A DNA stretch of 64,000 nt, taken from positions 204,387 through 268,386 of the forward strand of contig DLHJ01000005.1 of NCBI GenBank assembly GCA_002483145.1, given 5' to 3'. The position numbers and the translations under genes are program-made. Positions 1,189-61,260 of the stretch are shown here, piece by piece (position 1 is the first letter of the stretch; every line of letters starts with the position of its first letter). A model generated the notes under the pieces. That model was given only the letters and a program-made list of their open reading frames with translations. It did not search any database and had not been told where the DNA came from. The DNA comes from Cellvibrio sp. UBA7671 (GTDB lineage Bacteria; Pseudomonadota; Gammaproteobacteria; Pseudomonadales; Cellvibrionaceae).

Positions 1189-1300
1189 GGAACATTGGCG
1201 TCATTTCTAACAATTAAGTTAACCGGAGTTAATGATTAATAATTTTTTGCAACCATACAATTCGCCACCCTTAAGTCTTTATACAGGATTGCATGGAAAT

Positions 1301-2038
1301 ATGAATTTACAGGACAAAACATTACTCATAACGGGTGGCACCTCAGGCATCGGATACGCACTGGTAAAGCAGTTATCGTCTACCAGTAAAAGCATTGTTG
1401 TTATTGCCCGCAACCCCGTGCATCTTGAAAAACTAAAGAACGAATTCCCCAATGTGCACATTTACAAATGTGCCCTTGCAAACAAAATAGATCTGGAAAA
1501 AACATTCAGTGAAATCATTAACAACCACCCTGATATTTCTGTGGTCATTAATAATGCTGGAATTCAAGCAACGCCAACATTCCTGGATAAAGATTTTAAT
1601 TTTGACAGCATCGAGAATGAAATCAGTGTAAACCTTATGGCCCCCATCAGGATCTGTGCACTCATGCTGGGCCCTTTACTTAACTTGAAAGCACCAGCCG
1701 CCATAGTCAACATCACATCAGGCTTGGGGCTTTACCCCAAAAAAAATTCCGCTGTGTACTGCGCCACTAAAGCGGGCCTGCGCAATTTCACCCAAAGCTT
1801 TCGCTACCAACTGGAAGAAACTCCCATAAAAGTCTTTGAGGCGATAATGCCATTAGTTGATACACCTATGACTCATGGAAGAGGTAAGGGAAAAATATCA
1901 CCCGACAGCGCAGCCGAAGCCATTATCAAAGGCATTGAAAATGACGATGAAGAAATTTTTGTAGGGAAAGCAAAACTAATTCCATTGGTGGCGCGAATTA
2001 GCCCCACCCTAATGGCAGCCATTATGAAAGCCGGATAA
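1301..2038 (+). CDS. Short-chain dehydrogenase/reductase (DltE-like)
   Basis: An NAD(P)-dependent classical SDR of about 245 residues. From the ATG at 1301 it shows the dinucleotide motif TGGTSGIG (residues 11-18), the structural NNAG motif, and the catalytic set Ser140, Tyr153 and Lys157 (YCATK). The sequence resembles the COG3967/DltE group of uncharacterised SDRs. An in-frame ATG at 1232 would add 23 residues, but its GGAG lies only 3 bases upstream and the extra segment is not SDR-like, so 1301 is preferred. The gene is followed after 11 bases by the membrane-protein gene at 2050. In the cluster it is a candidate ketoreductase for an amino-ketone intermediate; that role is inferred. Confidence 0.85.
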   Translation: MNLQDKTLLITGGTSGIGYALVKQLSSTSKSIVVIARNPVHLEKLKNEFPNVHIYKCALANKIDLEKTFSEIINNHPDISVVINNAGIQATPTFLDKDFNFDSIENEISVNLMAPIRICALMLGPLLNLKAPAAIVNITSGLGLYPKKNSAVYCATKAGLRNFTQSFRYQLEETPIKVFEAIMPLVDTPMTHGRGKGKISPDSAAEAIIKGIENDDEEIFVGKAKLIPLVARISPTLMAAIMKAG

Positions 2039-2049
2039 CGGAGCCAACT

Positions 2050-2718
2050 ATGAAACAACTGATAACAATCGCGCTTATATTAGCAGCCATATTTGCGTCC
2101 ACATTTATTGTGATAAAAGCCACTGGCATCTTAACCATCGAGGACGTTAGAACATGGCTGACGATGGCTTCAGAAATAAATCCCGTATATGTGGCAATAG
2201 CCGTAATTATTTTATTGTTCTCCGATCTTTTTATTGCAGTCCCCAACTTAACAATTTGTATCTTGTCAGGATATTTTCTGGGATGGTTAGGGGGTGGTCT
2301 TGCATCAATGACCGGAATGATGCTGGCAGGTATAGTCGGGTATTGGATTTGCTGGGCGATCGGCCCGAAAATCCTCATAAAAATTTACAAAGACGAAAAT
2401 AAACTTGCGGAAATGCAACATATTTTTTCCGAGCACAGCGCCAGCATAATATTAATGTGTCGCGCGCTGCCAATTTTACCGGAAGTTGTCGCTTGCTTAG
2501 CAGGTGCAAACAAAATGTCATTTTTCCGCTTTATGGTGTACTACAGCATATCAACCGTCCCTTATTCGTTTATCGCCGCCTATGCCGGCTCGAAAAGTTC
2601 GCTAGCCAACCCGACACCGGCCATTCTCGCAGCGATAGGCATTTCTTTAACCTTATGGTTTTCATGGTTTATATTTTTGCGCCGAAATTATCCTAAATCA
2701 GATCAAAAACCAATTTGA
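2050..2718 (+). CDS. VTT-domain (DedA/TVP38-like) membrane protein
   Basis: A 222-residue integral membrane protein with an N-terminal signal-anchor (MKQLITIALILAAIFAST) and a VTT/SNARE-associated core: a Gly-rich re-entrant segment (FLGWLGGGLASMTGMMLAG), the motif CRALPILPEVVACLAGANKM, then FRFMVYYSISTVPYSFIAAYAG. VTT/DedA-superfamily proteins are implicated in lipid scrambling and membrane lipid homeostasis. It lies 11 bases after the SDR gene and upstream of the acyltransferase-fusion gene, so it is probably part of the same transcription unit. Transport of the cluster's product is a reasonable but untested idea. Confidence 0.82.
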   Translation: MKQLITIALILAAIFASTFIVIKATGILTIEDVRTWLTMASEINPVYVAIAVIILLFSDLFIAVPNLTICILSGYFLGWLGGGLASMTGMMLAGIVGYWICWAIGPKILIKIYKDENKLAEMQHIFSEHSASIILMCRALPILPEVVACLAGANKMSFFRFMVYYSISTVPYSFIAAYAGSKSSLANPTPAILAAIGISLTLWFSWFIFLRRNYPKSDQKPI

Positions 2719-2801
2719 AAAAAATCAATTTTTACAAAAAAGGAAGTTAATTAACGCCAACTGCTCTTGAATAAAATTTTTGACCATATGAGGTATACAT
2801 A

Positions 2802-5201
2802 ATGGACGTTATTGATTCGGTTACCACCAAAACCAGTTGCACCCGCTTCGACACCATTCTTGATATCCCCGAACACCAATGGGATGCAGTAGTACCGCGA
2901 GCCACAGGCCTAAAGCACAACGTACTGCAAACGTTTGAGTTGTCGGGCGTGAATAACTTAAATTGTCACTACCTGACATTTGAGCAAGGCAACCACTACA
3001 TCGGCAAAGCTAATCTTTACGAAGTATCAATGGATTTTGCATCCCTCGATAAAAACCTCTCCCCCCACGCACGCCGCCTGATAAAAAGTTGGATACCGGA
3101 TTATCTGTATTTATCCATGGCGGAGTGCGGTTTATTTGCCATGAATGGCGATGGAATAGCGGTAAAAGATGTACATCATCTAGCGCAAGTAATTCCATTG
3201 ATTCACAACGAATTACAAACTATTGCCACCGAGAAAAATTTGGACTTGCTGGTATTTCGCGATGTACCGCTGGAACAGTACAGCATTTACGAAAAAATCC
3301 TGGTGCCCCTGGGGTATGCCCCCTCTGCTGGATTCACCAATGCCGTTATCGACATTCGCTGGGATTCAATAGAAAGCTATTTGGAAAGTTTAAACAGTAA
3401 AGACAGATACAAACTCAAAACCGCATTAAAGATAGAAGAAGATTTTGGTATACGCGTTGAAATAACGTCTGACTACAAACATCTGGCCAAGCAAATGGCA
3501 GACCTATGGCGCAATGTGAATGCATCTTCAGACGATTACAACCGTGAGCAGCTGGATGAAGAATTTTTTTACGAAGCGGGCTTGCGCCTGGAAAATAACA
3601 GTGAAGTTATTTTATTTTATGCAGGAGAAAAACTCGTGGCTTTTATGTGGAGCCTGATTGGGACTGAAGACTACCACATGGCAGATTGGGGGGTGGATTA
3701 CGATTATCCACAATACCGTGAGGCCAATTTTTATCGCGCTGCATCGATGATTTCATTAAAGCGTGCAATTGCGCTTGGTAAGCAACGCATGCAATTAGGA
3801 ATGACCAATTATACGCCTAAAAAATTATTAGGCGCACAAATGCAACCATTGGTGTACTTCATCAAACATCAAAAAAATTCGCACTTCACCACTGTTGTAA
3901 ATCGCATGATTACCGATGCTATTGAGCAGCCGCCTGAACTAAATTATTACGCTGCTGGTAGCTGGCCGTTGGACACTATGACCGCCGATGAATACAAATC
4001 GATATTCACACAAAAACTGGTTGACTACACCACCAATGATGCCTTTGCCAAAGTAGAAGTTAATTACGATATAGATATTCTTAAGTTGGGAGGACTATAT
4101 GGATTTTATCCTGATACGGAAACCGTAAACTTCCCGCTGAGCAGTGGCATTTTTGTTAACTACAGTCAGCACCCCGACGTTATCAACGCAGCGAATAACG
4201 CTTGGCTACGCACCAAAGCAACCTATAACGGAGCACCTTTTTTTAGTGGTGAATCTGATGTTACACGCGCATTGCAATTTAAAATTTCCCAAGCGGTGCA
4301 ACAACAAGCAGTACAACTACTACCAAATGGAAATTTAATTCACCAGACAGCACTCGCGCCACTGCTCGATTCATCTTGCCTGGTATTGCTGGATGAACAA
4401 ACCAGTCCCGGCATATGGGAAGCGGTTGGTCCTGCCGGCTGTGAAATAAAAACCTTCGCGCATCAAGACCTTTCAAATCTGGAAGCAATCCTTACCGAAA
4501 ATACAGGCCGGAAAATCCTGATCATTGCTGAAACTGCATTTCCATTGTTCGGTGACCAAACTGATATAGCAGCTCTGGTGCAACTAAAACAGCAATACGG
4601 TGCGCGGCTTTATATCGATGAATCACTCACCCTTGGTTTATGCGGAAAACATTCACCTAACGCGCACTATCGTTTAGGCCTAAGCGCCCAACAGGGTGTT
4701 AGCGACCAGATTGATGTGATTGTTGCTTCTACGTTATCCGGTGTTGGTATCGATGCAGGGTTTGTTGCTGCATCAACCAAAGTGATCGAACACATCCGCC
4801 ATCAGGCGACCAGCTTATTATTTGCGGGCAGTTTATCGGCGGCGCAACTTGCAGCCTTATCCACCGCACTGGATCTGACCGCAAACCGCCTGTCGGCTGG
4901 TTCCGAACTATTTGCCAAAGCTGAATTTTTTACTGGAAAGTTAATTGAGCAAGGATTTAATGCTGCGCTTTATCAGAGTCCGGTCATCAATCTTATTTTC
5001 ACAGATTTTATGATCAGTCTGGCCGTTCAGAAAAAATTGCTGCAACTCGGTGTTGCTGTGGCGGCAATTGGCCAACCACTGTTGCCACCAGAAATGTCGG
5101 TAATTCATCTGAATTTATATGAAGACATCACCTGGGAAGACCTCGAAAAGTTAGTAGATATTTTTGCCAGCATTGCAATCAGTATTCAAATCACTGCTTA
5201 A
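2802..5201 (+). CDS. FemAB/GNAT-like acyltransferase fused to a degenerate alpha-oxoamine-synthase domain
   Basis: A 799-residue two-domain protein. Residues about 1-400 look like a FemAB/BioF2-like acyltransferase (GNAT-type fold), with RYKLKTALKIEEDFGI, LVAFMWSLIG and LGMTNYTPKKLLGAQMQP. Residues about 440-799 match a fold-type I PLP enzyme of the KBL/BioF/SPT family: the NYSQHPDVINAANNAW entry, a pyridine-nitrogen Asp606 in YIDES, and the TLS segment before the Schiff-base site. The catalytic lysine is absent: TLSK of the neighbouring synthase is TLSG here (Gly647), and the DEAHS histidine is replaced. The second domain is therefore probably non-catalytic, perhaps scaffolding or acyl-ACP docking. 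GAGG 8 bases before the ATG supports the start. Bacterial ceramide synthase is also a GNAT-like enzyme, hence the N-acylation hypothesis. Confidence 0.78.
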   Translation: MDVIDSVTTKTSCTRFDTILDIPEHQWDAVVPRATGLKHNVLQTFELSGVNNLNCHYLTFEQGNHYIGKANLYEVSMDFASLDKNLSPHARRLIKSWIPDYLYLSMAECGLFAMNGDGIAVKDVHHLAQVIPLIHNELQTIATEKNLDLLVFRDVPLEQYSIYEKILVPLGYAPSAGFTNAVIDIRWDSIESYLESLNSKDRYKLKTALKIEEDFGIRVEITSDYKHLAKQMADLWRNVNASSDDYNREQLDEEFFYEAGLRLENNSEVILFYAGEKLVAFMWSLIGTEDYHMADWGVDYDYPQYREANFYRAASMISLKRAIALGKQRMQLGMTNYTPKKLLGAQMQPLVYFIKHQKNSHFTTVVNRMITDAIEQPPELNYYAAGSWPLDTMTADEYKSIFTQKLVDYTTNDAFAKVEVNYDIDILKLGGLYGFYPDTETVNFPLSSGIFVNYSQHPDVINAANNAWLRTKATYNGAPFFSGESDVTRALQFKISQAVQQQAVQLLPNGNLIHQTALAPLLDSSCLVLLDEQTSPGIWEAVGPAGCEIKTFAHQDLSNLEAILTENTGRKILIIAETAFPLFGDQTDIAALVQLKQQYGARLYIDESLTLGLCGKHSPNAHYRLGLSAQQGVSDQIDVIVASTLSGVGIDAGFVAASTKVIEHIRHQATSLLFAGSLSAAQLAALSTALDLTANRLSAGSELFAKAEFFTGKLIEQGFNAALYQSPVINLIFTDFMISLAVQKKLLQLGVAVAAIGQPLLPPEMSVIHLNLYEDITWEDLEKLVDIFASIAISIQITA

Positions 5202-5245
5202 ACATCGCATCGGGAAATGACTGCGCCTTAATAGGAGAAGTAATA

Positions 5246-8200
5246 ATGACGCACAAAAATAGTCCATCACTCGCCATTGTCGGAATTGGTTGTCGCTATC
5301 CAGGCGGCATTAGTTCAGCCGATACATTCTGGGACGTCATCAGCAAGGGGACAGATGCAATCGTTGACGTCCCATCTAACCGCTGGGATTACCGCAAATT
5401 TTTTGATGCCAATGATAAACGCCCGGGTAAATCGCGCGTTAAACAAGGCGGATACTTACACCAATCACTGGATCAATTTGATCCGTTATTTTTTGGCATT
5501 TCCCCACGCGAAGCCGCTTATACAGATCCACAGCAGCGCCTGCTGCTGGAAGTGACCTGGGAAGCATTCGAAGATGCCGGTATCACCGAAGAGCGTTTAC
5601 GCGGCTCTGATACCGGTGTGTTTATCGGCGCATTTAACCTGGATAACTTATTGCTCCAATTGGGTCGCGATAATGTGGAAACCATCAGCGCTTCCACCGC
5701 GGCCAGCGTAACCATGACCATGCTGTCCAATCGTTTGTCTTATACATTCGATTTAACAGGCCCGAGCGTCACTATGGATACCGCCTGCTCTTCATCCATG
5801 GTGGCAATGCATTACGCGTGTCAAAGCATTATCAATGGTGATTGCTCTGTCGCTATCGCGGGGGGAGTCAACGTTATCTCACGCCCTGAATATATGGTTT
5901 CCATGAGCAAGGGCGGCTTCCTTTCTGCCCATGGCCGCTGTAAATCCTTTGATAAAGACGCGGCCGGTTATGTGCGCGGTGAGGGAGCGGGCATCATCAT
6001 TATCAAAACATTAGAGCAGGCGATTGCCGACAAGGATGAAATTTATGCCGTGATTCGCAACACCGGCGTGAACCAAGATGGCCATACCCAGAACGGTATT
6101 TCTTTCCCGAGCGCAGAAGCACAGCAGCGCCTGATCGAAAAACTGTACCGCGAAGCGGCGATCAATCCGCTGGATGTTGGGTATATCGAGGCCCATGGCA
6201 CCGGAACTCAGGCGGGAGACCCCATTGAAATTTCATCGCTCGCCGCTGTGTTTACTCCGGGTCGCGCGGTGGAAACTCCCTGTTTTGTCGGCTCCGTAAA
6301 ATCCAATTTCGGCCACACAGAATCGGCCGCAGGCGTGGCCGGGATCATCAAGGCATCACTCTCCATTAAAAACGGGGCAATCCTGCCCAACCTGCATTTC
6401 AATAATCCTAATCCCAATATTGATTTTGCCGGTGGACGCATTGCGGTCCCCACCAGCCAACGTATCTGGAATGAGGGCGAACGCACCCGCCTGGCTTCGG
6501 TTAACTCCTTCGGTTATGGCGGAACTAATGGCCACGTTATCCTGGAGGAATTTAAATCACCCATTTCTGCTCAGCCGACGCTCGATCAGGCAGGACATTA
6601 TTTGCTGCCATTGAGTGCAAAAAACCGCAAAGCATTGAACGCACGCTGCAGCAAGTTACTCGACTATTTGCAAAGCCCTCAAGGGCAAAACGTTTCGTTG
6701 AACGATTTGAATTACAGCTTGGCCTATCGCCAATCTGGCCTTGAAGAGCGCTTGAGTCTGGTCGTTAAAAACAAAACGGATCTTGAGGAAAAACTGCGCA
6801 GCCTCGTACAGGGCGATCACCCTGAAGGTAGCGTACAAGCCGCCGTTGATGTATCGGGCAATCGCCGCCTCGCCTTTGTATTTACCGGCATGGGTCCGCA
6901 ATGGTGGGCGATGGGCCGCGAACTTTATGCGCGCGAACCCGTCTTCCAGCAAGTCATTGACCAATGCGATGAGCTGTTCAGCAAAGTAGCAGGCTGGTCA
7001 ATCAAAGCAGAACTGCTTGCACCGGAAGCGGATTCCAAAATGGCTAAAACAGCCATTGCCCAACCCGCGAATTTCTTGATACAGGCGGGTTTACTCGCAC
7101 TTTATCGCTCTTGGGGAGTTACCCCGGCAGCGGTAGTTGGCCATAGTGTGGGTGAAGTAGCCTCCGCCTATGCATGCGGTGCATTAACTCTGGAAGATGC
7201 AATCACCGTCAGTTATCAACGCAGCCGTTTACAACAAACCCTGGCTGGCGGTGGCGGCATGCTCGCCATTGGCATGGGCGGCGATGCTGCATTTGAATTG
7301 ACCGGCTTATATGACCAGGTGTCTGTTGCTGCCGTTAACAGTGCTACCAGCGTAACCCTTGCAGGTAATCAGGAGCAGTTGGAAGAGATCTCCCAATTGC
7401 TGGAAGCACAAGGCATTTTCAACCGCATGCTGCAAGTGGAGGTGGCTTATCACAGCTACCAAATGGATCCGATCAAAGACGAGATCCACCGTGTGCTGGC
7501 GGACATCCACCCCCATCCGGAAAGTATTCCGGTGTATTCGACAGCCTTGGGAAGTCGAAGTAGTGGCAGCGCGTTCACTGCCGATTACTGGTGGCAAAAC
7601 GTTCGCCAACCAGTGAGCTTTGAGCGCGCTATTACCCAAATGATTGAAGATGGCTACACCCATTTTATTGAAGTGGGCCCGCATCCGGTAACCCGCAACT
7701 TCCTCAATGAATGCCTTGCCGACAAACAGATCCAGGGGCGTGTTATCGCCAGCCTGGTACGTAAAAAAGATGAATCTGTCGCCTTTCTCGAATCCCTTGG
7801 CCAATTGTTCAACGCCGGATACCACTTGCGCTGGCCTGAGGCCATCCAGCAAGCCAACTTCATCCGCCTGCCGACTTATCCCTGGCAGCGCGAACGCTAC
7901 TGGAACGAGTCCAACCTATCGCGCAACTACTTGTTAGGTAGCGGTGAAGAACATCCCTTTTTCTTTGAAAAGCTGATGACCCCAGAACCCACATGGCAGG
8001 TGGAGCTAAACGAAAACTATTTCCCCTTCCTGCCAGATCACCGCATTTCCGGGCGCGTCGTCTTTCCTGGAGCGGGTTATGTAGAAGCGGGATTGGCGTT
8101 GCAGCATTACCAAAAAGAACGCCGCGGTGCGGTTAGCCTGGAACAACTCAAGTTCCACCGCATGCTGATGGTAGATGCAGATAAAACCCAGCAGTTGCGC

Positions 8201-11200
8201 ATTGTTGAAGATAAAAGCCAAAACAGGTTTGCGGTCTACTCCAGCGAGGTCAACAACAATAACTGGACGTTACACGCGACTGGCAAGTTGGTAGGAGCCG
8301 TTTTGCGCCGCACACCAGCCAAAATCGACCTCGATCAGCTGAAGAAAAAATGCGCGACCGCCCTGAATATACCAACGCTCTATCGCAGTTTTGATGAGCG
8401 CGGCCTTGGCTACGGCGCGCAATTCCAGACGATTGAGCAGCTCTTTACCGGTAAGCGCGCCTTGCTAGCGAGAATTTCTGCCCCGTTAATGGCCGAAGAT
8501 GCTCATTCAAAGAGTTATTTAAGCTACCCCAGCTTATTGGATGGCGCCTTCCAAAGCCTGATTGCCCTCAGTGACAGCCAGCAGACAGCCCCCATGGTTC
8601 CAGTCGAAGTAGGCGAAGTTACCGTCTATCAAAACATCCCGAGCCATTTTTGGTGCTATGGCGAAATACTGGAGCAAACCGCAACAGGCATTCTGTGCGA
8701 TTTGAAATTGCTTGATGACCAAGGCAATACCTTGGCGGAGTTACGCTCACTGGAATGCACACTGCTAGCGGGTGAAACCGATGAGGCCGCAGTCAATACA
8801 CTGGATGACGCGTTTTATCATTACCAATGGACTCCAAGACAACTGGCCCTTTCAGATAGAGAAGTCACTGGATCTGATGCCTGGTTAATTCTTGCCTCCG
8901 AACAGACCCTGCCATCAATCAAGCCCTTTGTTGCCCACCTCGAAGGTCGCGGGATCAGCCCGAAATTGCTGACAACTAGCAATGTGCCCGACGACGAAAA
9001 AGCAATAACGGCATTTAAACAGGCGCTGGAAGAAAATCTGGCTGCCGGGACTAATCACTTGATCTACTTTGCCGGAGATCTGGAAGGCGAACAGCAGCTG
9101 CCTGAATTCACCGATGTCATTAACCCTTGCTTACCCTTGATTGCGTTGGCACAAAGCCTGGATAACCCAGCCCTTGCAACCCTCAAGGCATGGATAAAGG
9201 AACCGGAGTTCCAGCTCAACCTGAACATAGTCACTCGCGGCGCCCATACTATTGGCGGCAAACCGACCAATCCGGCATTACAACCTGCCGCATCACTGGC
9301 ACATTTGTTGGCCAACGAGCTTAGCGCTATCACACCGCGCCATATAGATCTCGCGCTGGGCTCGGCGGCTGTCACTGATGCTGAGTTGCAAATGCTGGTC
9401 AATGAGCTGTTGGATGGTCAGGAAGAGGATATCGCCCTCCAGGGTGAAATGCGTTTTATTCGGGAATTGACCACCACCAATATTGATGCCGGCGAACAGC
9501 GTGTTGTGCATCAGATACCAGCCAATGATCCGCTCAATCCGGTGCAATTGCGCAAGTCTGCCGAGGGTAGCCTGGAGTTCCAACGTATCGCACCTGCGAC
9601 CTTACGTCCCGATGAAGTGCAGATACAGATCGAGCGCTTACTTATCGACAAACCGGATATTGACGCCTTGTTACAAGGCCGTCGCAAAACCCATCAGCTC
9701 CCCCGCTTGGCCCTGGGCTGGATTGTGGCAACTGGTGCGGATTGCGACGAGTTTGCGCTGGGTGATGAAGTATTAGTACTGGTGAAAGATTCGGCGATCA
9801 CCAACCAGTACACCCTGAACCATCGCCTCTGCCTCAAACGCCCTGCCGGCTTGCCGGAAAATCTTTATCCAGACCTCGCGTTTTACGCGGCAGCACTTTA
9901 TATGCTGGATGATGTTGCCGGTGGTACCAGCGGTAAAGTCTTTATCCAAAACGCCGCATCTCCGCTGGGTCTTGCCCTGGGTCAGTTAGCGCTGGCCCGC
10001 AAACTCACGGTCTTTGCCACCATCAGCCAGGAGGCGCAACGCCAACCACTGCAAGCAATGGGTGTTCACAGGATCCTGAACAATAAGGATCTTACCTACA
10101 CCACTGACCTGGTAGACCTGCTGGGGGAAAGCCGCCTGGATTTGGTCGTAAATGATTTGGGTAATGAGCACGCCACGCAGCTGTTCAAACTACTCGCTCC
10201 TGGCAAACACTTTATCCAACTCCCCGCAGTGGATGGGCAGGAACTGGCAGCAACGCCCGCCCTGACAAATTACCGCTATGCCTACCTCGATATCTTCCAG
10301 AGCTTTACCAGTCAACCAGGGCTGTTCGCCCAGTGGATCGAGCGAGCAAAAGAGACAGTGATTAGCGATGGTTTACCGCCATTGCCGAAAGGAGTAGCTA
10401 ACGCTTGCAACACCACAGAGCTGTTGAATTATTTTGTGCTCAGCGATGAAACAGGCCAGGCGGTCATCGAGTTTACCGATGCCAGCGTTACAGTAAGCGA
10501 GACCCTTGCAGTGCCGTCAATTGATCGCAGTGGAAGCTATCTGATCACCGGCGGAACCAGCGGCCTTGGATTGCAAATCGCCAAGTGGCTGTTAGCGCAG
10601 GGAGTTGACTCTATTGCATTGGTTAGCCGAAATGGCAGCAACCGCCCGGAGGCGCGCGAATTTGTTCAATCGGCTCAGGGTAAACAAGTGCGCTTGTTTG
10701 ACGTAGACATCACCGATCTGAAAGCCACCCAAAGCTTGGTCCAGAACATCAATAGGGAAATGCGCCCACTTGCCGGGATCATCCATTGCGCAATGGTGCT
10801 GGACGATGATCTCGCCGTTCGCATGACGCCGGAGCGGATGAAGAAGGTAATGCAACCCAAAGTGCAGGGCACTATTAACCTGCATAAAGCGACACTCGAT
10901 TTATCTCTGCGCCAATTTATCTGCATCTCCTCGATTTCCTCCCTGATTGGCAACGTCGGCCAAGCCAACTACGTGGCTGCCAATGCCTTCCTCGACGGGT
11001 TTGCCCATTACCGCCAGGCTGCGGGTTTAACTGCCACCACGATTAACCTGGGCGTACTGCAGGAGATAGGTGTGGTTGCACGCGATGAAAACCTTGCCAT
11101 GGTACTGGATGCAAAAGGCATTCAAGGCCTGCTCACAGCCGATGTGCTCCGGGCGCTGGGTTACATCATGAACAACGAACCAGCCCAGATAGGTTTATTC

Positions 11201-11596
11201 AATGTGGATTGGGCGGTGTGGGCGCAGCAATCACCCAAAAGTGCAGCATCTAGCCGCTTTAGCAGCCTGGTGCAAAAAGCCCGCGCACGGCAAGACATAC
11301 CGCCGGCACTGGCTGCGTTGCTCAGTGAGCTGGAGCATCAGGAACAATATTTTGCGCGCTTACTGGAAATCCTGTCGGGCGAATTAGCGCAGATCGTCAA
11401 AGTCCCGCTTAGTGAAATCAAACAGGATCGAAGCATTAGTGATTTGGGCATCGATTCGATTATGAGCGTCGAACTCTCACGCGGCCTTCGCAGCAAATAT
11501 GGGCTTGAAGTGACTTCCATGGAGCTACTCAGTGGACCGTCGTTGGATCAGTTGACCGAGCAATTGGTCAATCAGCTCACTGAAAAAACCTGCTAG
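5246..11596 (+). CDS. Reducing type I polyketide synthase (KS-AT-DH-psiKR-ER-KR-ACP)
   Basis: A single-module 2116-residue PKS. KS (about 10-430) has active-site Cys181 in DTACSSS, with HGTGT and GHTESAAG. AT (about 560-870) has Ser634 in GHSVG; the specificity motif is VAYHS, which does not clearly say malonyl or methylmalonyl. DH (about 900-1170) has His932 in HRISGRVVFP. Residues about 1180-1420 resemble the structural half of a ketoreductase. A divergent ER (about 1430-1720) has NAASPLG in place of the usual AAGGVG. KR (1760-1960) has TGGTSGLG at 1768-1775, an LDD motif (B-type) and Tyr1909. ACP has Ser2071 in GIDSIMS. There is no thioesterase or methyltransferase, consistent with release by the adjacent alpha-oxoamine synthase. 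GGAG 9 bases upstream supports the ATG. Confidence 0.95.
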   Translation: MTHKNSPSLAIVGIGCRYPGGISSADTFWDVISKGTDAIVDVPSNRWDYRKFFDANDKRPGKSRVKQGGYLHQSLDQFDPLFFGISPREAAYTDPQQRLLLEVTWEAFEDAGITEERLRGSDTGVFIGAFNLDNLLLQLGRDNVETISASTAASVTMTMLSNRLSYTFDLTGPSVTMDTACSSSMVAMHYACQSIINGDCSVAIAGGVNVISRPEYMVSMSKGGFLSAHGRCKSFDKDAAGYVRGEGAGIIIIKTLEQAIADKDEIYAVIRNTGVNQDGHTQNGISFPSAEAQQRLIEKLYREAAINPLDVGYIEAHGTGTQAGDPIEISSLAAVFTPGRAVETPCFVGSVKSNFGHTESAAGVAGIIKASLSIKNGAILPNLHFNNPNPNIDFAGGRIAVPTSQRIWNEGERTRLASVNSFGYGGTNGHVILEEFKSPISAQPTLDQAGHYLLPLSAKNRKALNARCSKLLDYLQSPQGQNVSLNDLNYSLAYRQSGLEERLSLVVKNKTDLEEKLRSLVQGDHPEGSVQAAVDVSGNRRLAFVFTGMGPQWWAMGRELYAREPVFQQVIDQCDELFSKVAGWSIKAELLAPEADSKMAKTAIAQPANFLIQAGLLALYRSWGVTPAAVVGHSVGEVASAYACGALTLEDAITVSYQRSRLQQTLAGGGGMLAIGMGGDAAFELTGLYDQVSVAAVNSATSVTLAGNQEQLEEISQLLEAQGIFNRMLQVEVAYHSYQMDPIKDEIHRVLADIHPHPESIPVYSTALGSRSSGSAFTADYWWQNVRQPVSFERAITQMIEDGYTHFIEVGPHPVTRNFLNECLADKQIQGRVIASLVRKKDESVAFLESLGQLFNAGYHLRWPEAIQQANFIRLPTYPWQRERYWNESNLSRNYLLGSGEEHPFFFEKLMTPEPTWQVELNENYFPFLPDHRISGRVVFPGAGYVEAGLALQHYQKERRGAVSLEQLKFHRMLMVDADKTQQLRIVEDKSQNRFAVYSSEVNNNNWTLHATGKLVGAVLRRTPAKIDLDQLKKKCATALNIPTLYRSFDERGLGYGAQFQTIEQLFTGKRALLARISAPLMAEDAHSKSYLSYPSLLDGAFQSLIALSDSQQTAPMVPVEVGEVTVYQNIPSHFWCYGEILEQTATGILCDLKLLDDQGNTLAELRSLECTLLAGETDEAAVNTLDDAFYHYQWTPRQLALSDREVTGSDAWLILASEQTLPSIKPFVAHLEGRGISPKLLTTSNVPDDEKAITAFKQALEENLAAGTNHLIYFAGDLEGEQQLPEFTDVINPCLPLIALAQSLDNPALATLKAWIKEPEFQLNLNIVTRGAHTIGGKPTNPALQPAASLAHLLANELSAITPRHIDLALGSAAVTDAELQMLVNELLDGQEEDIALQGEMRFIRELTTTNIDAGEQRVVHQIPANDPLNPVQLRKSAEGSLEFQRIAPATLRPDEVQIQIERLLIDKPDIDALLQGRRKTHQLPRLALGWIVATGADCDEFALGDEVLVLVKDSAITNQYTLNHRLCLKRPAGLPENLYPDLAFYAAALYMLDDVAGGTSGKVFIQNAASPLGLALGQLALARKLTVFATISQEAQRQPLQAMGVHRILNNKDLTYTTDLVDLLGESRLDLVVNDLGNEHATQLFKLLAPGKHFIQLPAVDGQELAATPALTNYRYAYLDIFQSFTSQPGLFAQWIERAKETVISDGLPPLPKGVANACNTTELLNYFVLSDETGQAVIEFTDASVTVSETLAVPSIDRSGSYLITGGTSGLGLQIAKWLLAQGVDSIALVSRNGSNRPEAREFVQSAQGKQVRLFDVDITDLKATQSLVQNINREMRPLAGIIHCAMVLDDDLAVRMTPERMKKVMQPKVQGTINLHKATLDLSLRQFICISSISSLIGNVGQANYVAANAFLDGFAHYRQAAGLTATTINLGVLQEIGVVARDENLAMVLDAKGIQGLLTADVLRALGYIMNNEPAQIGLFNVDWAVWAQQSPKSAASSRFSSLVQKARARQDIPPALAALLSELEHQEQYFARLLEILSGELAQIVKVPLSEIKQDRSISDLGIDSIMSVELSRGLRSKYGLEVTSMELLSGPSLDQLTEQLVNQLTEKTC

Positions 11597-11635
11597 GCCT
11601 TATCCATCAACAAGGACATTTGAAGAGAATTGACT

Positions 11636-12958
11636 ATGCAAAGCACCAACATTAAAACCAGCGAACAGCGTCGCCACGACGCTATGGCACTGTTAGCCCG
11701 GCAGTCGGGCGCTGCCAAACCTGCGGGCAGCAAAGCCATCCAACGCCCGCCCTTTAAACTGGAGTTCGATATACGCGATTTCTCCACTTATCCGGAGATT
11801 CGCGCTTTTGACCAGCACAAGTCCATCATTGCGCGCGCCGGTGTGGAAAACCCTTACTTTCGCAGCAATGAAGGTACTACCGGCCGCCATACCCGCATTA
11901 ATGGGAAGGAGCTGATCAGTTTCTCAGGTTACAACTACCTGGGGTTTTCTGGTCATCCCCATGTCAATGAACAGGCCAAAACCGCCATCGACCAATACGG
12001 CACCTCACCATCCGCGAGCCGTTTGGTCACTGGCGAAAAACCTGTCCATCGCGAACTGGAAGCAGCCTTGGCGGGATTCCTGGGGACTGAATCGGCGCTG
12101 GTATTTCCCAGCGGTCACGCCACCAACGTGACTGTCATCGGACATTTCTTTAACAGCGAAGACTTGATTCTCTATGACGAGCTAAGCCACAACAGCCTCG
12201 TGGAAGGGTGCCTCTTGTCTGGTGCCCGACGCATCGCGTTCAAGCACAACAATGTCGAACACTGTGAGCGATTAATCGCCGAAAACCTGCACAAGTATCA
12301 GAAAGTTCTGGTGGCAGTAGAGGGGGCCTACAGCATGGATGGCGATCTGGCGCCCTTGCGGGACTTTGTCCGTTTGCGCCAGCAGTATCCGGTGCTCCTG
12401 TTTGTCGATGAGGCTCATTCCCTGGGTACCGTAGGCTCAACCGGCCGCGGTATCAGCGAATATGCTGGTGTATCCCCCAACGATGTGGATTTTTGGATGG
12501 GAACACTGAGCAAAGCACTTGCGAGCAATGGTGGTTACATTGCCGGAAAGAAAGCCCTGATTGACTACCTGAAATACACCACACCCGGTTTTGTCTATTC
12601 CGCAGGCATCACTCCGGCCAATGCTGCAGCAGCACTGGCCAGTCTGGAATTACTCGTTCAAAGCAACCAACCGGTATTACGTCTGCAAAACAATGCCGAT
12701 TACTTCCGCCAACTGGCATTGGATCGCAAGCTCAACATCGGCCCCAGCCTTGATACACCCATAGTGCCCATCATCCTCGGCGACAGCGAGAAAACCATCC
12801 GGGTTGCCGATCAGCTATTCCGGGCGGGCATCAACGTACACCCCATGTTTTACCCTTCGGTCCCACAAGGAGAGGCGCGGCTGCGCTTTTTTATTAGCAG
12901 CGAACACCGGAAGGAAGACATGGTTTACACCCTGGATACCTTGGCATCTGCTCTCTGA
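11636..12958 (+). CDS. PLP-dependent alpha-oxoamine synthase (BioF/KBL/SPT family)
   Basis: A 440-residue fold-type I aminotransferase-like enzyme that condenses an acyl thioester with an amino acid, losing CO2, to give a 2-amino ketone. It shows SPSASRLVTG, the cofactor-binding DEAHSLGTVG and the Schiff-base Lys293 in GTLSKALASNGGY. It lies 39 bases after a thioesterase-less PKS, so it probably takes the chain from the PKS ACP. Whether the amino acid is serine, glycine, alanine or another cannot be read from the sequence. A TTG two codons upstream (11630) is in frame, but the ATG at 11636 sits behind GAAGAGA and is preferred. The N-terminal 65 residues precede the usual catalytic core. Confidence 0.92.
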   Translation: MQSTNIKTSEQRRHDAMALLARQSGAAKPAGSKAIQRPPFKLEFDIRDFSTYPEIRAFDQHKSIIARAGVENPYFRSNEGTTGRHTRINGKELISFSGYNYLGFSGHPHVNEQAKTAIDQYGTSPSASRLVTGEKPVHRELEAALAGFLGTESALVFPSGHATNVTVIGHFFNSEDLILYDELSHNSLVEGCLLSGARRIAFKHNNVEHCERLIAENLHKYQKVLVAVEGAYSMDGDLAPLRDFVRLRQQYPVLLFVDEAHSLGTVGSTGRGISEYAGVSPNDVDFWMGTLSKALASNGGYIAGKKALIDYLKYTTPGFVYSAGITPANAAAALASLELLVQSNQPVLRLQNNADYFRQLALDRKLNIGPSLDTPIVPIILGDSEKTIRVADQLFRAGINVHPMFYPSVPQGEARLRFFISSEHRKEDMVYTLDTLASAL

Positions 12959-13042
12959 TTCCAGTTACCACACACTATTAGCGCCACCGGTCCACAACGC
13001 TGGTAAGGCGCGGCATACCGTGAACAGCCATAAGGAATAATC

Positions 13043-13453
13043 ATGAGTTTCACTGAACAACAATACCTTGTTATCAAAACGCTGGCCGATGGGGTATGCC
13101 CCGGACTCGGCTCTATTCCACCTTCATCAACCCTGCCGGTTGCAGACATGTTTGTCGGTATTGCGGAGACCTGGGCTCCAGCGGTGCTTCAGGCTACCGC
13201 CAACGCCTTGGATATTATCAACAGCATCGCACTTTCTATTTTTGGTCAGCCGATCCAAAACCTTGACCAGTCAGGCATCGCTACCGTTACCGAAATAGTG
13301 GCTAGCAACACTGACCTCAAACCTTTTTGGGAGCCATTCCGCATTTTAATCGCACTCAATTATTACGCATTGCCGCCGGTATACAGCGCTATAGGCCTGC
13401 CCGGCCCAACCATTGATGCTGGTGGATTAACTGCTGAAGGCTATCCGGTCTAG
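13043..13453 (+). CDS. Gluconate 2-dehydrogenase subunit 3-like small protein
   Basis: A 136-residue protein whose second half (FWEPFRILIALNYYALPPV, then GLPGPTID and a terminal EGYPV) recalls the small subunit 3 family that accompanies membrane-bound GMC dehydrogenases. Its position 11 bases before a GMC oxidoreductase gene supports the match. It has no Tat or Sec signal, whereas subunit 3 proteins usually carry a Tat signal, and no cytochrome subunit is encoded nearby. It may act as a cytoplasmic chaperone-like partner of the flavoprotein. AAGGA before the ATG supports the start. Family assignment is by resemblance and synteny. Confidence 0.6.
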   Translation: MSFTEQQYLVIKTLADGVCPGLGSIPPSSTLPVADMFVGIAETWAPAVLQATANALDIINSIALSIFGQPIQNLDQSGIATVTEIVASNTDLKPFWEPFRILIALNYYALPPVYSAIGLPGPTIDAGGLTAEGYPV

Positions 13454-13464
13454 GAGAACAGAAA

Positions 13465-15072
13465 ATGACTGCTATGGAAAATTTCGACGCTATTGTTGTA
13501 GGCGCTGGTGCAACCGGAGCCGTTTATGCCCATGAACTTACCAGGGCCGGACTGAATGTACTCTGCATTGAAAAGGGTAGATTCTTTCAAAACCACCGCA
13601 CCGATTTTGTTGAAAACGAATTGGAAACTTTCCGCCTGGTGTGGGATTACAGTGACTATGAAATCACCGGTAACGCTTTTGATGGCGGCCCCAACTTGGG
13701 CGCCAACGTCGGCGGAGGAACGCTCGCCTGGACTGCAACCGCATTACGAATGTTTGAACACGATTTCCGTTTCCGCTCAACGTTCGGCGCTGTGCAGGGT
13801 GCCAACCTTGCCGATTGGCCTATCAGCAAAAAAATGCTCCAGCCCTACTACACCCTGGCCGAACAACAAATGGGCGTTTCAGGTAGCGCAACCTGGTGGG
13901 ATGAATTAGCCACACCGCTTCCGCCAAATCCCCCTATTCCGCTCTATCCTGCATCGCGCGCCATACAACGTGGGTTTGATCAACTAGGGTTGCGTTCCAG
14001 CCCCGGTCGGTTGGCGACTAATTCTCAAACCTATCAGGGACGTTCGGCGTGCCTTAACTGTGGGTATTGCCGCTCCGGTTGTAGAGTCGATGCCAAATAT
14101 CAAGCCGATGAAGTGTTGATCAAACCTGCCCTGGCTACTGGTCGCCTGGAGCTGGCCACCCGCTCCGTGGTGACCCGCATCGATACCGACAGAAGCGGAA
14201 CCGAAGCCCGCTCGGTTAGCTACACCAACCTGGATACCGGTAGAGAAAGCTCTGCGCGGGCTCGTTTTATCATCCTGTGCAATAACCCCTTTGAAATTCC
14301 GCGTTTACTGCTGGCCTCAACCAGCCGTCGTCACCCCAATGGTATCGGCAATCACTACGACCAAATCGGACGCAACTTCTATTCACATGCGACCTGTTTG
14401 GGTATGGGCATATCCAACGACGACCATCGCACTTACGTTGGTCATAACATGTGTAACGTCATGTCACTGGACACTTGCGTGAACCGCGAGCGCGATGACT
14501 ACGTGGGAGGTTTTTCCATGCTCTCGCTGAACGGCGCTGGTGCGGGTTCACTCGCGGCATTTCCATTGCACAAATTGCACGGCATCGATCTGCAACAACG
14601 CATGACGCAATACAACAACAGCATGGTGTTAATTACCTTTATCGATGGCATGCCGGTTTACGATAATCGCGTTGGTATTAATCGTAAAAAGACCGATGCA
14701 TTGGGTATGCCGGTACCTACGATTCATTACAACTGGCACGAGAATGACCGCCGTGCATTTGCTCACGCACGCGAAAAAATTGCGCAGGTATTTGAAGCTG
14801 CTGGTGCTTACGAAAGTTTTACCTCCGACATTTTCGAAAGCCATCCAATGGGTACCATGCGCATGGGCAATAACCCTAAAACCTCGGCAACAGATCGCTT
14901 CTGCCGCGTGCACGGCGTTCATAACTTGTTTGTCGCAGGCGGCTGCCTATATCCCACTGGCAGTTCCGTCAATCCAACTTTAACGATGCATGCGCTGGCA
15001 TTGAGATCGGCACGTAAAATTATTAAACAATGTCGCAATCCTCTCTTGAGTTCACTGGCGGAGGTTGAATAA
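13465..15072 (+). CDS. GMC-family FAD oxidoreductase
   Basis: A 535-residue flavoprotein of the glucose-methanol-choline family. The FAD-binding Rossmann motif VVGAGATGAVYA is at residues about 10-22, the second GMC motif NVGGGTLAWTATALRM follows, and the C-terminus has HPMGTMRMG and GGCLYPTGSSVNPTLT, bearing the active-site His/Asn region. A cysteine-rich stretch CLNCGYCRSGC (C-x2-C-x2-C-x3-C) matches the type seen in electron-transferring GMC dehydrogenases and suggests an Fe-S cluster or structural site. There is no signal peptide. GGAG 8 bases before the ATG supports the start; the stop overlaps the next start (TAATG). It probably oxidises an alcohol of the cluster product. Confidence 0.92.
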   Translation: MTAMENFDAIVVGAGATGAVYAHELTRAGLNVLCIEKGRFFQNHRTDFVENELETFRLVWDYSDYEITGNAFDGGPNLGANVGGGTLAWTATALRMFEHDFRFRSTFGAVQGANLADWPISKKMLQPYYTLAEQQMGVSGSATWWDELATPLPPNPPIPLYPASRAIQRGFDQLGLRSSPGRLATNSQTYQGRSACLNCGYCRSGCRVDAKYQADEVLIKPALATGRLELATRSVVTRIDTDRSGTEARSVSYTNLDTGRESSARARFIILCNNPFEIPRLLLASTSRRHPNGIGNHYDQIGRNFYSHATCLGMGISNDDHRTYVGHNMCNVMSLDTCVNRERDDYVGGFSMLSLNGAGAGSLAAFPLHKLHGIDLQQRMTQYNNSMVLITFIDGMPVYDNRVGINRKKTDALGMPVPTIHYNWHENDRRAFAHAREKIAQVFEAAGAYESFTSDIFESHPMGTMRMGNNPKTSATDRFCRVHGVHNLFVAGGCLYPTGSSVNPTLTMHALALRSARKIIKQCRNPLLSSLAEVE

Positions 15073-16433
15073 TGGAGGAACTTCCATCAAAAAAAGCCAT
15101 TGTGATCGGAGCCGGCCTCGCCGGCCTGGTGAGCGCACTAAGCCTGCAAAAAGCAGGAATAACGGTCACCTTAATCGATCAGCGCAAACAGGTAGGCGGA
15201 CTGTGCGGCACGTTCAGACTGGACAACCGTGAGTTTGTTATCGCGTGCAATGATTTCGGCAAAGGGCTGGTGAAATTGTTGCGCGAGCTTGGCGTAAATT
15301 TTCCATTTAATAACAAAAAATCGTCAGTGTTTTATCGCGGCCAATGGTTCAACGCTGCACCAGATTTAAAAATGTTGTGGCAATTACGCAGTGAGTGGCG
15401 CAATGTTTTTTCGTTGCTGGGGGGAATTATTGCCCAACAATTCCCTCACCGCACACCTCAATCTATTGAAAAGTTTGCCAATCGCCTAACCAGTGCTGGC
15501 GCGGTTAATGATCTCAGCAAATTAATCTCCTATTTTATGGGTGTGCACCCAAGCGATATCCAAACCTCTTTCTTTGGACTGGATGGAAAGTACAATTATG
15601 GTTACACGACTATGGCTTGCCCAATAGGTGGACCACAAGCTATGGCCGATGCTATTGCCGATGTGTTCTTACAACAGGGTGGCAAGCTATTGCTCAATAC
15701 TCGCTACACGAAACACAACAAACAAGGGAATCATTTTTACGCAGAAATCAACGATGGTGAATCGCGCATTGTGGAAGCCGATTATATTGTTGACACGCGT
15801 GAACAACGCTCGCTATATCCCGCTGACAGCAAACGTGGGTTACCGCTTTCCATGTTATGTTTGGCGGTAAAAAATGAGTTTCCTTATCCGGAAAACACCC
15901 ATACGCTCACCTACTTTGAGCCCGATGTTTCACACTGGTTTGGGAAATTAGACCAAGGGATTCAACCTGAACATTTTGGTTTTCATGTATTCAAGAGCGA
16001 TCTGGTTCCAAATACGGATAACACTTACACGCTTAACCTCTATTTCTATCTACCACGCGGTGTTAACCAACTCGAAGACGGTAAACGCACTATCTACAGC
16101 GAATACTTACTTAATCGTCTGGAAAAACTGTTGCCCGGCATCAATAACCATTTGGCATACAGACGCCTGCTCACACCAGATGATTTTGTTGCGTTGCATG
16201 GTTTATCCAGCCGGGTAATGCCATTTATTGTATCCCGCGAAAAACCGCACAACTCAAGCAGTGAAGCAGGCTACTTTTATGCAGGCCACAGTGTATATCC
16301 GCCTGGAGAGCATGCGGGGGCAGCAGCATTGTCCGGTGCGCTGGTAGCACAAAAAATCATTTCCGAAAAAACTTTATTCAATACTGAAACTTCAGTTGGA
16401 GGTCATCATGAAAATGCACATCAACAGGCGTAA
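15072..16433 (+). CDS. FAD-dependent phytoene desaturase/amine oxidase-like protein
   Basis: A 453-residue flavoprotein with an N-terminal dinucleotide-binding motif VIGAGLAGLVSALSLQKAG (about residues 10-28), an acidic ribose-binding end (TLIDQRKQVGG) and a C-terminal HSVYPPGEHAGAAALSGALVA motif that closes the FAD site. This pattern is that of the phytoene desaturase/amine oxidase superfamily, including carotenoid desaturases, isomerases and saturases. The start codon overlaps the stop of the GMC gene, so the two are translationally coupled and probably act on the same molecule. The substrate is unknown. Confidence 0.85.
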   Translation: MEELPSKKAIVIGAGLAGLVSALSLQKAGITVTLIDQRKQVGGLCGTFRLDNREFVIACNDFGKGLVKLLRELGVNFPFNNKKSSVFYRGQWFNAAPDLKMLWQLRSEWRNVFSLLGGIIAQQFPHRTPQSIEKFANRLTSAGAVNDLSKLISYFMGVHPSDIQTSFFGLDGKYNYGYTTMACPIGGPQAMADAIADVFLQQGGKLLLNTRYTKHNKQGNHFYAEINDGESRIVEADYIVDTREQRSLYPADSKRGLPLSMLCLAVKNEFPYPENTHTLTYFEPDVSHWFGKLDQGIQPEHFGFHVFKSDLVPNTDNTYTLNLYFYLPRGVNQLEDGKRTIYSEYLLNRLEKLLPGINNHLAYRRLLTPDDFVALHGLSSRVMPFIVSREKPHNSSSEAGYFYAGHSVYPPGEHAGAAALSGALVAQKIISEKTLFNTETSVGGHHENAHQQA

Positions 16434-16605
16434 TTTTTTACTTGGTACATTAAGCACTACGGCGCTCACTGTAGCTCCATTCAAAGTGACAGCGAATACA
16501 GACATCAATCAACAACTCAAAAAAAACTACATCCAGTGTGGAAAAATAAATTCAACTGATTTGCGTCATTTTTATTACGCAGGAACAAATACTAGGGATA
16601 ACTAA
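16408..16605 (+). CDS. Short Tat-signal peptide protein
   Basis: A 65-residue product made of a twin-arginine signal (NRRNFLLGTLSTTALTVAP) plus about 35 residues without a recognised domain. It overlaps the end of the preceding flavoprotein gene by 26 bases. GGAGG with 5-base spacing stands before the ATG at 16408, a strong ribosome site that argues for real translation. It could be a very short exported accessory of the redox enzymes, such as a Tat hitch-hiker partner for the signal-less GMC pair, or the stub of a truncated gene. No downstream continuation is visible. Confidence 0.6.
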   Translation: MKMHINRRNFLLGTLSTTALTVAPFKVTANTDINQQLKKNYIQCGKINSTDLRHFYYAGTNTRDN

Positions 16606-16672
16606 GGCGTTATTCCTATCATCATTCGCATTGAGGAAATCAATCAAATTTAAAATACAAATGGAAAGAGCG

Positions 16673-17116
16673 ATGAAATATTGTTTATACGCGTTGTTAC
16701 TTATTCAATCTATGGCCGCAGCGATGGAAGAACCCAGCACTATGAATTGGAAAACATTAACACTTCATATTACCGATATTGACCTTAAACGCCCCGGTGA
16801 AATTGTAGTTATGGTATTTCAAGAAGATGGTTTTCCCAAAGATCATCAGAAGGCCATAAAAAAATACTCGATTGACCCGTTAGAATCCCATCACCAACTC
16901 AGCATTCAAGTTCCGGATGGAAAATTTGCATTAAAAATTCACCATGATGAAGATAAAAGTGGAACCATGACAAAAAACTGGACAGGTATTATTCCTGCTG
17001 AAGGAGTTGGATTTTCTTCAGGTGCAAAAGTGAAATTTGGTCCCCCATCTTTCAAAGCTGCACAAATGGAATTACCAGAATCAGGTGAAACAAATATTTC
17101 CATTATTTATCCCTGA
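16673..17116 (+). CDS. Exported DUF2141 protein
   Basis: A 147-residue protein with a Sec signal peptide (MKYCLYALLLIQSMAAAM) and one DUF2141 domain: the LTLHITDI strand, GEIVVMVFQEDGFP, then FALKIHHDEDKSGTMTKNWTGIIPAEGVGFS. DUF2141 proteins are small beta-rich exported proteins of unknown function. The start is chosen at the ATG behind GGAAAG; a TTG at 16631 would add 14 residues that do not look like part of a signal peptide. It is the last gene of the cluster and is followed by an intrinsic terminator. Confidence 0.85.
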   Translation: MKYCLYALLLIQSMAAAMEEPSTMNWKTLTLHITDIDLKRPGEIVVMVFQEDGFPKDHQKAIKKYSIDPLESHHQLSIQVPDGKFALKIHHDEDKSGTMTKNWTGIIPAEGVGFSSGAKVKFGPPSFKAAQMELPESGETNISIIYP

Positions 17117-41196: not shown

Positions 41197-41220
41197 AGAT
41201 GACTCCACGTCATTTAAAAA

Positions 41221-60929: not shown

Positions 60930-61005
<76 letters not shown>

Positions 61006-61011
61006 TAAATG

Positions 61012-61184: not shown

Positions 61185-61260
<76 letters not shown>

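What the first reader, a model, noticed from the sequence alone, without database searches (positions are those of the whole stretch)
1232..17116. PKS / alpha-oxoamine synthase / FemAB cluster for a possible sphingoid-like amino-lipid
Seen: one reducing PKS without thioesterase, directly followed by an intact PLP alpha-oxoamine synthase (Lys293), with an SDR, a FemAB/GNAT-like acyltransferase fusion, a VTT/DedA-like membrane protein and two flavoproteins in the same orientation. Known: alpha-oxoamine synthases release ACP- or CoA-bound chains by decarboxylative condensation with an amino acid, as in serine palmitoyltransferase and fumonisin Fum8; bacterial ceramide synthase is GNAT-like; VTT proteins act on lipids. 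Inference: the PKS replaces fatty acid synthase as chain source, and the cluster makes an N-acylated amino alcohol or amino-ketone lipid. I do not recognise this gene combination as a described pathway.
Basis: partly seen in the sequence, partly recalled or inferred. Interest (0 to 1): 0.88.

Follow-up and report, generated by a model that had tools for sequence, protein, structure and literature searches.

The report
PKS-fed amino-lipid operon in Cellvibrio
A conserved set of bacterial genes probably builds an unusual sphingolipid-like molecule by passing a polyketide chain to an amino-acid-joining enzyme; the core chemistry is already known, but one fused protein in it carries a dead copy of that enzyme and has no described counterpart that I could find.

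Summary
The genes are real: eight co-directional genes plus a divergent Crp-type regulator, kept in the same order in Marinimicrobium agarilyticum at another chromosomal place (45-72% identity). The inference [quoted passage not shown] is well supported. The claim that the combination is undescribed is only half right. PKS+AOS+SDR is the core of SgaABC in Pseudomonas fluorescens (shown to make sphinganines, PMC12134224) and of rkp/wcb-type capsule loci, and the window AOS falls in a clade with capsule-locus AOS.

Three things set this locus apart. (1) The 799-aa protein is a FemAB/GNAT-like domain fused to a second AOS domain that has lost Lys, both His and Arg in all three full-length copies, yet is under purifying selection (dN/dS 0.09). 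It resembles the dead LCB1 subunit of eukaryotic serine palmitoyltransferase. (2) The PKS enoylreductase has lost its NADPH motif, so the chain may be unsaturated. (3) A GMC dehydrogenase with a small subunit and a cluster-specific flavoprotein are added.

In my searches the fusion turned up in 3 of 21 genomes of the genus (one seen only to residue 319) and in Marinimicrobium. Verdict: a new variant of a known kind; product and partner contacts are untested.

The parts
535..1077 (-). Crp/Fnr-family regulator, divergent; homologue (54%, 91 of 170) in the same position in Marinimicrobium
1301..2038 (+). Short-chain dehydrogenase (TGGTSGIG, S...YCATK, by eye); candidate 3-keto reductase. ORF opens at 1232 but the conserved start is ATG 1301. 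63% to Marinimicrobium
2050..2718 (+). VTT/DedA-type membrane protein (PF09335), candidate lipid flippase; 58% to Marinimicrobium
2802..3956 (+). N-terminal FemAB_like/GNAT domain (residues 1-385) of the 799-aa fusion; candidate N-acyl or aminoacyl transferase; 63% to Marinimicrobium
4137..5201 (+). C-terminal pseudo-AOS domain (residues 446-799): Lys, His138, His213, Arg equivalents lost, Asp kept; 28% to Marinimicrobium; dN/dS 0.089 against Cellvibrio UBA8526
5246..11596 (+). Iterative-type (single-module) type I PKS, KS-AT-DH-(psi)ER-KR-ACP, no thioesterase; ER NADPH motif lost; 54% to Marinimicrobium
11630..12958 (+). Intact alpha-oxoamine synthase (Lys295/293), PKS-linked clade with Tyr/Ala at SPT positions 52/80; 65% to Marinimicrobium
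13043..13453 (+). Small protein of Gluconate_2-dh3 type (its Marinimicrobium homologue, 59%, hits PF13618 at 2.4e-9; the window protein itself only at E 0.12)
13465..15072 (+). GMC flavin dehydrogenase, nearest solved relatives by sequence FAD-glucose and fructose dehydrogenase subunits; 72% to Marinimicrobium
15072..16433 (+). Amine-oxidase/CrtI-type FAD protein; found only in copies of this cluster in the genomes searched; 60% to Marinimicrobium

Best explanation
This is a biosynthetic operon for a polyketide-derived sphingoid-type amino-lipid. The iterative PKS builds a long acyl chain from malonyl units on its own ACP; with KR and DH intact and the ER apparently dead, the chain is probably unsaturated or conjugated unless an outside enoyl reductase helps. 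The AOS releases it by decarboxylative condensation with an amino acid (serine most likely by analogy, not shown), giving a 2-amino-3-ketone. The SDR reduces the ketone. The FemAB-like half of the 799-aa protein acylates or aminoacylates the new amine; its dead AOS half serves as a docking or regulatory partner that binds the active AOS or its aminoketone product. The VTT protein moves the product across the membrane; the GMC dehydrogenase with its small subunit and the CrtI/amine-oxidase-like flavoprotein oxidise or isomerise it. Shown: gene content, order conservation, catalytic residues present or lost, AOS clade, purifying selection. Inferred: co-transcription and every chemical step.
For: Domain hits; AOS with its catalytic Lys, His, Asp, His and Arg inside a 24-row clade supported 96/99 in which 20 rows are fused to a PKS or lie near one; no thioesterase hit in the PKS; same gene order in a second genus at an unrelated place, followed by a PPTase gene there; SgaA/SgaB precedent with in vitro SPT activity and sphinganine products; ER motif lost in 4 of 15 aligned PKSs including this one, intact in 10, not alignable in 1; pseudo-AOS lost Lys/His/His/Arg in 3 of 3 full-length sequences yet dN/dS is 0.089 in the one pair compared.
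Against: No direct chemistry. The Crp-SDR pair, or the SDR alone, is at the purL-mltF site in three Cellvibrio genomes that lack the fusion gene, so the SDR may serve something else. The FemAB domain showed no tie to the E. coli ceramide N-acyltransferase candidate YghO, though with a shallow profile, and no credible solved relative. The AOS has Tyr where S. multivorum SPT has Asn52, a residue in water-mediated contact with the serine hydroxyl, so serine use is uncertain. A cyanobacterial SPT-like AOS gave no ketosphinganine when tested (PMC8895605 abstract). Four of the 24 clade rows showed no clear PKS in the stretch fetched.
Confidence: 0.6

Rival explanations
1. The lipid is a membrane anchor or carrier for a surface polysaccharide, as proposed for rkp/wcb capsule loci, and not a free secondary metabolite.
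For: Many loci of the AOS clade carry capsule-type genes (annotated; LTA-synthase-, capsule- or ABC-type matches in L094 and L098-L101); [quoted passage not shown]
Against: No capsule, ABC-exporter or glycosyltransferase gene among the clustered genes here or in Marinimicrobium; the flanks are purL and mltF or gyrB and a glucuronyl esterase. The rest of the genome was not checked for capsule genes. The rkp-type PKSs aligned keep an intact ER motif.
Confidence: 0.15
2. The product is a polyene-type aminoketone pigment or antioxidant or a diffusible signal, with the flavoproteins as desaturase/isomerase/oxidase, and the FemAB protein adds an amino acid from aminoacyl-tRNA rather than a fatty acid.
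For: Decayed ER; a CrtI/amine-oxidase-like enzyme specific to the cluster; the FemAB fold family includes aminoacyl-tRNA-dependent transferases (recalled).
Against: No direct evidence of conjugation; a trans-acting host enoyl reductase would restore a saturated chain.
Confidence: 0.2
3. The pseudo-AOS domain is only a decaying relic without function.
For: All catalytic residues but Asp lost; only 28% identity to the Marinimicrobium copy against 63% for the FemAB part.
Against: Full-length and in frame in three of three complete copies (the fourth, G009, is cut by its contig end after residue 319); dN/dS 0.089 between two Cellvibrio genomes; kept across two genera.
Confidence: 0.12

Closest known systems
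SgaA/SgaB/SgaC of Pseudomonas fluorescens MYb115 (PMC12134224)
   Same: Monomodular iterative type I PKS beside an AOS, with an SDR reductase in the cluster
   Different: No FemAB-pseudo-AOS fusion or flavoproteins are described for it in the sections read; its products are C24-C28 sphinganines, whereas the window PKS has a decayed ER. The SgaB and SgaA sequences were not obtained, so no direct alignment was made
RkpA/RkpG/RkpH (rhizobia) and WcbR/WcbT capsule-locus PKS-AOS pairs (that RkpG and WcbT are the AOS is recalled)
   Same: PKS, AOS and SDR in a row in the Shinella and Sinorhizobium plasmid loci; AOS in the same clade with the Tyr52/Ala80 signature
   Different: Capsule genes adjacent there and none here; intact ER there; no match to the window FemAB domain, VTT, GMC, FAD, small protein or Crp in 18 stretches at 1e-3. 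The Pseudomonas plasmid locus does hold an annotated GNAT-family gene of another kind
Eukaryotic SPT heterodimer LCB1/LCB2 (SPTLC1/SPTLC2)
   Same: One active and one catalytically dead AOS homologue encoded for the same pathway
   Different: Here the dead copy is bacterial and fused to a FemAB-like transferase; heterodimer formation is untested
Canonical bacterial ceramide genes (E. coli BL21 spt with ACP, epimerase, acyl-AMP ligase and yghO; Caulobacter spt/cerR/bcerS)
   Same: AOS, reductase and N-acyltransferase logic
   Different: Acyl chain loaded on a free ACP or CoA rather than built by a PKS; E. coli SPT only 33% identical to P0005; YghO not detectably related to the FemAB domain in a shallow comparison

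Membership tests
PKS-linked AOS clusters (SgaAB / RkpA-RkpG / WcbR-WcbT kind) | Monomodular type I PKS without thioesterase directly beside an AOS | tested here: met
   same in Marinimicrobium
PKS-linked AOS clusters (SgaAB / RkpA-RkpG / WcbR-WcbT kind) | AOS falls in the clade of PKS-linked AOS and keeps Lys/His/Asp/His/Arg | tested here: met
   24-row clade 96/99, bootstrap not fully settled; residues. SgaB itself not in the tree
PKS-linked AOS clusters (SgaAB / RkpA-RkpG / WcbR-WcbT kind) | SDR reductase in the cluster | tested here: met
   orthology to SgaC/RkpH not tested
PKS-linked AOS clusters (SgaAB / RkpA-RkpG / WcbR-WcbT kind) | Fully reducing PKS with intact ER | tested here: not met
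   NADPH motif lost and Pfam ADH_zinc_N below cut-off
rkp/wcb capsule loci | Adjacent capsule polysaccharide genes | tested here: not met
   neighbours are purL and mltF; gyrB and glucuronyl esterase in Marinimicrobium
Serine palmitoyltransferase (canonical) | Asn52/Gly80 serine pocket of S. multivorum SPT | tested here: not met
   Tyr and Ala in P0005, as in 22 of 24 (Tyr) and 24 of 24 (Ala) clade rows (residues from PMC10196870 passages)
Serine palmitoyltransferase (canonical) | Condenses L-serine with an acyl thioester | not testable with these tools
   needs enzyme assay
LCB1/SPTLC1-like non-catalytic AOS subunit | AOS fold without PLP lysine and His | tested here: met
   by sequence only:
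LCB1/SPTLC1-like non-catalytic AOS subunit | Forms a heterodimer with the active subunit | not testable with these tools
   only single chains can be predicted; the monomer model failed
FemAB_like/GNAT acyltransferases (PF04339) | Profile match above curated cut-off | tested here: met
   32.8 bits vs 27 (N-terminal 400 aa); Marinimicrobium 42.4
Bacterial ceramide N-acyltransferase (YghO/Aca/bCerS) | Detectable sequence relation | tested here: inconclusive
   hhalign of the three-row A3 against single YghO: probability 0.24%, E 0.25; YghO hits no Pfam family; both sides shallow
GMC dehydrogenase with gamma subunit (FAD-GDH/fructose DH type) | GMC catalytic subunit plus Gluconate_2-dh3 subunit | tested here: met
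   the window small protein alone scores 13.1 bits (cut-off 23.4), its Marinimicrobium homologue 38.1

The most novel reading that the evidence does not exclude
The 799-aa protein is a bacterial asymmetric-AOS partner: its dead AOS half pairs with the active AOS as LCB1 pairs with LCB2, setting substrate choice, and its FemAB half takes the aminoketone directly and N-acylates it, so that synthase and ceramide-synthase-like steps sit in one complex fed by a polyketide synthase making an unsaturated chain. This would be an independent bacterial invention of a two-subunit SPT.
Probability: 0.2. Interest if true: 0.82.

Novelty: new variant of a known kind. Interest (0 to 1): 0.58.

Why it matters
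PKS-derived sphingolipids in bacteria were reported in 2025 (PMC12134224, which calls it the first example to its authors' knowledge). This locus gives a named type strain (Marinimicrobium agarilyticum DSM 16975) with a compact conserved gene set that could yield a different, possibly unsaturated and N-modified, family member, and it contains a dead AOS domain fused to a transferase, which would make the question why SPT needs a non-catalytic partner testable in a bacterial system.

Tried and rejected
Structure prediction of the fusion from three sequences gave mean pLDDT 39.5 and was not used. A search of solved structures with the FemAB profile gave only two chaperonin chains at E 0.65-0.73, and none with the small protein. 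FemAB domain against YghO: no relation found, with a shallow profile. A Crp-type operator was looked for between the divergent genes in window and Marinimicrobium: no inverted repeat of 12 or more; promoter and terminator scans gave no excess over shuffles. Plasmid search with the flavoprotein: no match. The idea that the SDR is unrelated was weighed: an SDR, with or without the Crp gene, sits at purL-mltF in three Cellvibrio genomes without the fusion, but Crp and SDR are in the Marinimicrobium cluster at another place, so I keep them. DUF2141 (16631-17116) was left out as a part: 88% match in Cellvibrio G001, none in the Marinimicrobium stretch. Literature (open-licence PMC papers only): no paper of the held library contains both 'FemAB' and 'oxoamine synthase'; searches showed no description of this fusion in their listings.
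Full report
OBSERVATION. Pfam gives SDR, VTT, FemAB_like plus Aminotran_1_2 on one 799-aa protein, a PKS with KS, AT, DH, KR and ACP, an AOS, a GMC oxidoreductase, an amine-oxidase-type FAD protein and DUF2141. The SDR probably starts at ATG 1301, where its Marinimicrobium homologue starts.

THE GENE SET IS A CONSERVED UNIT. A pattern scan of the GTDB species genomes with the fusion protein (a method that finds close relatives only) gave three loci: Cellvibrio sp. UBA8526 (89%), a gammaproteobacterial MAG (85%, cut after residue 319), and Marinimicrobium agarilyticum DSM 16975 at 45% over the whole length. In Marinimicrobium the order is Crp (divergent), SDR, VTT, fusion, PKS, AOS, small protein, GMC, FAD protein, then a PPTase gene. 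Identities to the window: Crp 54%, SDR 63%, VTT 58%, PKS 54%, AOS 65%, small protein 59%, GMC 72%, FAD protein 60%. The place differs: purL and mltF flank it in the window; gyrB and a glucuronyl esterase lie on the Crp side in Marinimicrobium, and purL/mltF have no match in that stretch. DUF2141 matches in Cellvibrio G001 (88%) but not in the Marinimicrobium stretch, so I leave it out. In G001 the set lies on two contigs and its PKS piece reads in two frames; the MAG contig of G009 ends inside the fusion, and the FAD-protein search of that MAG (G425) found nothing.

DISTRIBUTION. The fusion is in 3 of 21 genomes of the genus. With the FemAB profile, 5 of 390 genomes of the order match at 1e-8: the window and one other strongly (its place is the Marinimicrobium coordinate), three weakly and in part at about 1e-10. 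In the class draw 5 of 369 matched the whole protein query at 1e-26, but the four besides the window match only the AOS half at 24-26%. In the phylum draw 1 of 398, the window itself. G001 and G009 were not hit in these three draws, nor Marinimicrobium in the last two, so the draws are thin. Of 12 purL-mltF stretches from the genus (a 13th locus, L070, is the G009 cluster contig): five have a gap of about 0.4-0.6 kb and no cluster gene (L061, L063, L066, L067, L072; in L066 mltF is placed coordinates), two carry Crp and an SDR (L064, L071) and one an SDR (L065), all about 50% identical in the SDR, one has a Crp remnant of 19 residues (L062), one has 2.8 kb without a match to any cluster gene (L060), one a weak 29-41% SDR match (L069), and one is too short (L068). 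The cluster is thus variable at this site, gained or lost.

THE AOS. P0005 keeps the canonical residues (the label of the Arg is recalled). In a tree of 39 rows it sits with its two orthologues in a 24-row clade (96/99; bootstrap not fully settled). Of the 24 rows, 20 are fused to a PKS or have one directly or one gene away; L093, L096 and L104 showed none in the stretch fetched and L103 only a weak partial match. Inside the clade 22 of 24 rows have Tyr where S. multivorum SPT has Asn52 and 24 of 24 have Ala for Gly80; among the other 13 catalytic rows Tyr occurs in 1 and Ala in 1. PMC10196870 (passages) places Asn52 and Gly80 in water-mediated contact with the serine hydroxyl. Serine use therefore cannot be read off.

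THE DEAD AOS. Residues 446-787 of the fusion match AOS profiles (bioF 8.9e-44, below that model's curated cut-off). Against the SPT positions the three full-length sequences have Ser for His138, Leu/Met for His213, Ser/Ala for Lys244 and His/Gln for the Arg; Asp210 remains. The domain is 28% identical between the genera (98 of 347) while residues 1-385 are 63% identical (242 of 385). Between the window and Cellvibrio UBA8526 (G001) dN/dS is 0.089 for it, 0.046 for the FemAB part and 0.039 for the AOS (one pair of genomes). So it evolves fast but is not free to decay. LCB1 of eukaryotic SPT likewise lacks the PLP lysine and works as partner of LCB2 (PMC3794620 passages). The likeness is an analogy; pairing was not tested, and the monomer model failed.

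THE PKS. KS, AT, DH, KR and ACP motifs are intact by alignment. The ER NADPH motif is intact in 10 of 15 aligned PKSs, lost in 4 (window, its Cellvibrio relative, Marinimicrobium, L102) and not alignable in 1. Pfam ADH_zinc_N scores 30.2 and 25.6 bits in the window and Marinimicrobium (cut-off 31.8) against 81.0 in a capsule-locus PKS, which also has ADH_N and ADH_zinc_N_2. A chain with double bonds is the plain reading; a trans-acting reductase is the alternative.

OTHER PARTS. The FemAB domain is above the PF04339 cut-off by a little. E. coli YghO, which I take as the candidate ceramide N-acyltransferase ECD_02850 of PMC9386255 (passages) by gene order, is not detectably related in a shallow comparison. 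In Caulobacter the acyltransferase bCerS acts in the cytoplasm after Spt (PMC11087976 passages). The small protein belongs with Gluconate_2-dh3 through its Marinimicrobium homologue, and the GMC protein is nearest FAD-glucose and fructose dehydrogenases among solved chains, so the pair looks like a dehydrogenase with its gamma subunit. The FAD protein matched only the window in 274 class genomes at 1e-40, no plasmid, and three of four cluster genomes asked. A single PPTase-type match lies elsewhere in the window's genome.

KNOWN OR NEW. PMC12134224 (abstract, passages, sections 8, 9, 15) shows that a two-gene PKS/AOS cluster makes sphinganines, that SgaB has SPT activity, and counts 6,101 homologous putative clusters. 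PMC3908369 and PMC3557214 (passages) describe the wcb/rkp PKS loci and the idea of a lipid carrier or anchor; that RkpG is AOS-like is recalled. The core is therefore known. The fusion, the decayed ER with this AOS, and the added dehydrogenases make it a new variant. I found no paper on the fusion (listings, and the eight papers named in this report in the parts stated).

Noticed in passing
window 11630-16433 vs L032; window 1301-5201 vs L002/L019: Between the window and Cellvibrio G001, dS is 0.28-0.38 for AOS, small protein and FAD protein but about 0.7-1.3 for SDR, VTT, the fusion and mltF, which suggests recombination of the second half of the gene set.
   Followed up: partly
L074 2730-8891 (G010): A close Cellvibrio relative without the fusion gene carries a 2054-aa open frame joining a KS-AT PKS part to a C-terminal AOS 48% identical to P0005.
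   Followed up: partly
L102 1603-11415 (G252): A PKS with no recognisable ER (2060 aa), an AOS of the same clade and an MMPL-family transporter in a row: perhaps another unsaturated amino-lipid locus.
   Followed up: partly
L086, L105-L115: In the genus of G420 (unnamed), 54 of 82 genomes carry an AOS of this kind at E 1e-85 or better.
   Followed up: no
L060 1560-4390 (G019): Between purL and mltF this Cellvibrio has 2.8 kb with no match to any gene of the cluster; content not read.
   Followed up: no
window 32803-41235: 2810-aa repetitive surface-adhesin-like ORF on the - strand with cadherin-like repeats and a C-terminal RTX-like end, by eye.
   Followed up: no
window 25536-28103: Strong AT skew (0.297 in 26001-28000) coincides with an 855-aa Lys/Gln/Glu-rich protein, DUF349-like by recollection.
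   Followed up: no
window 60930-61342: Tandem duplication of a tRNA-Gly(gcc)/tRNA-Glu(ttc) pair on the - strand.
   Followed up: no
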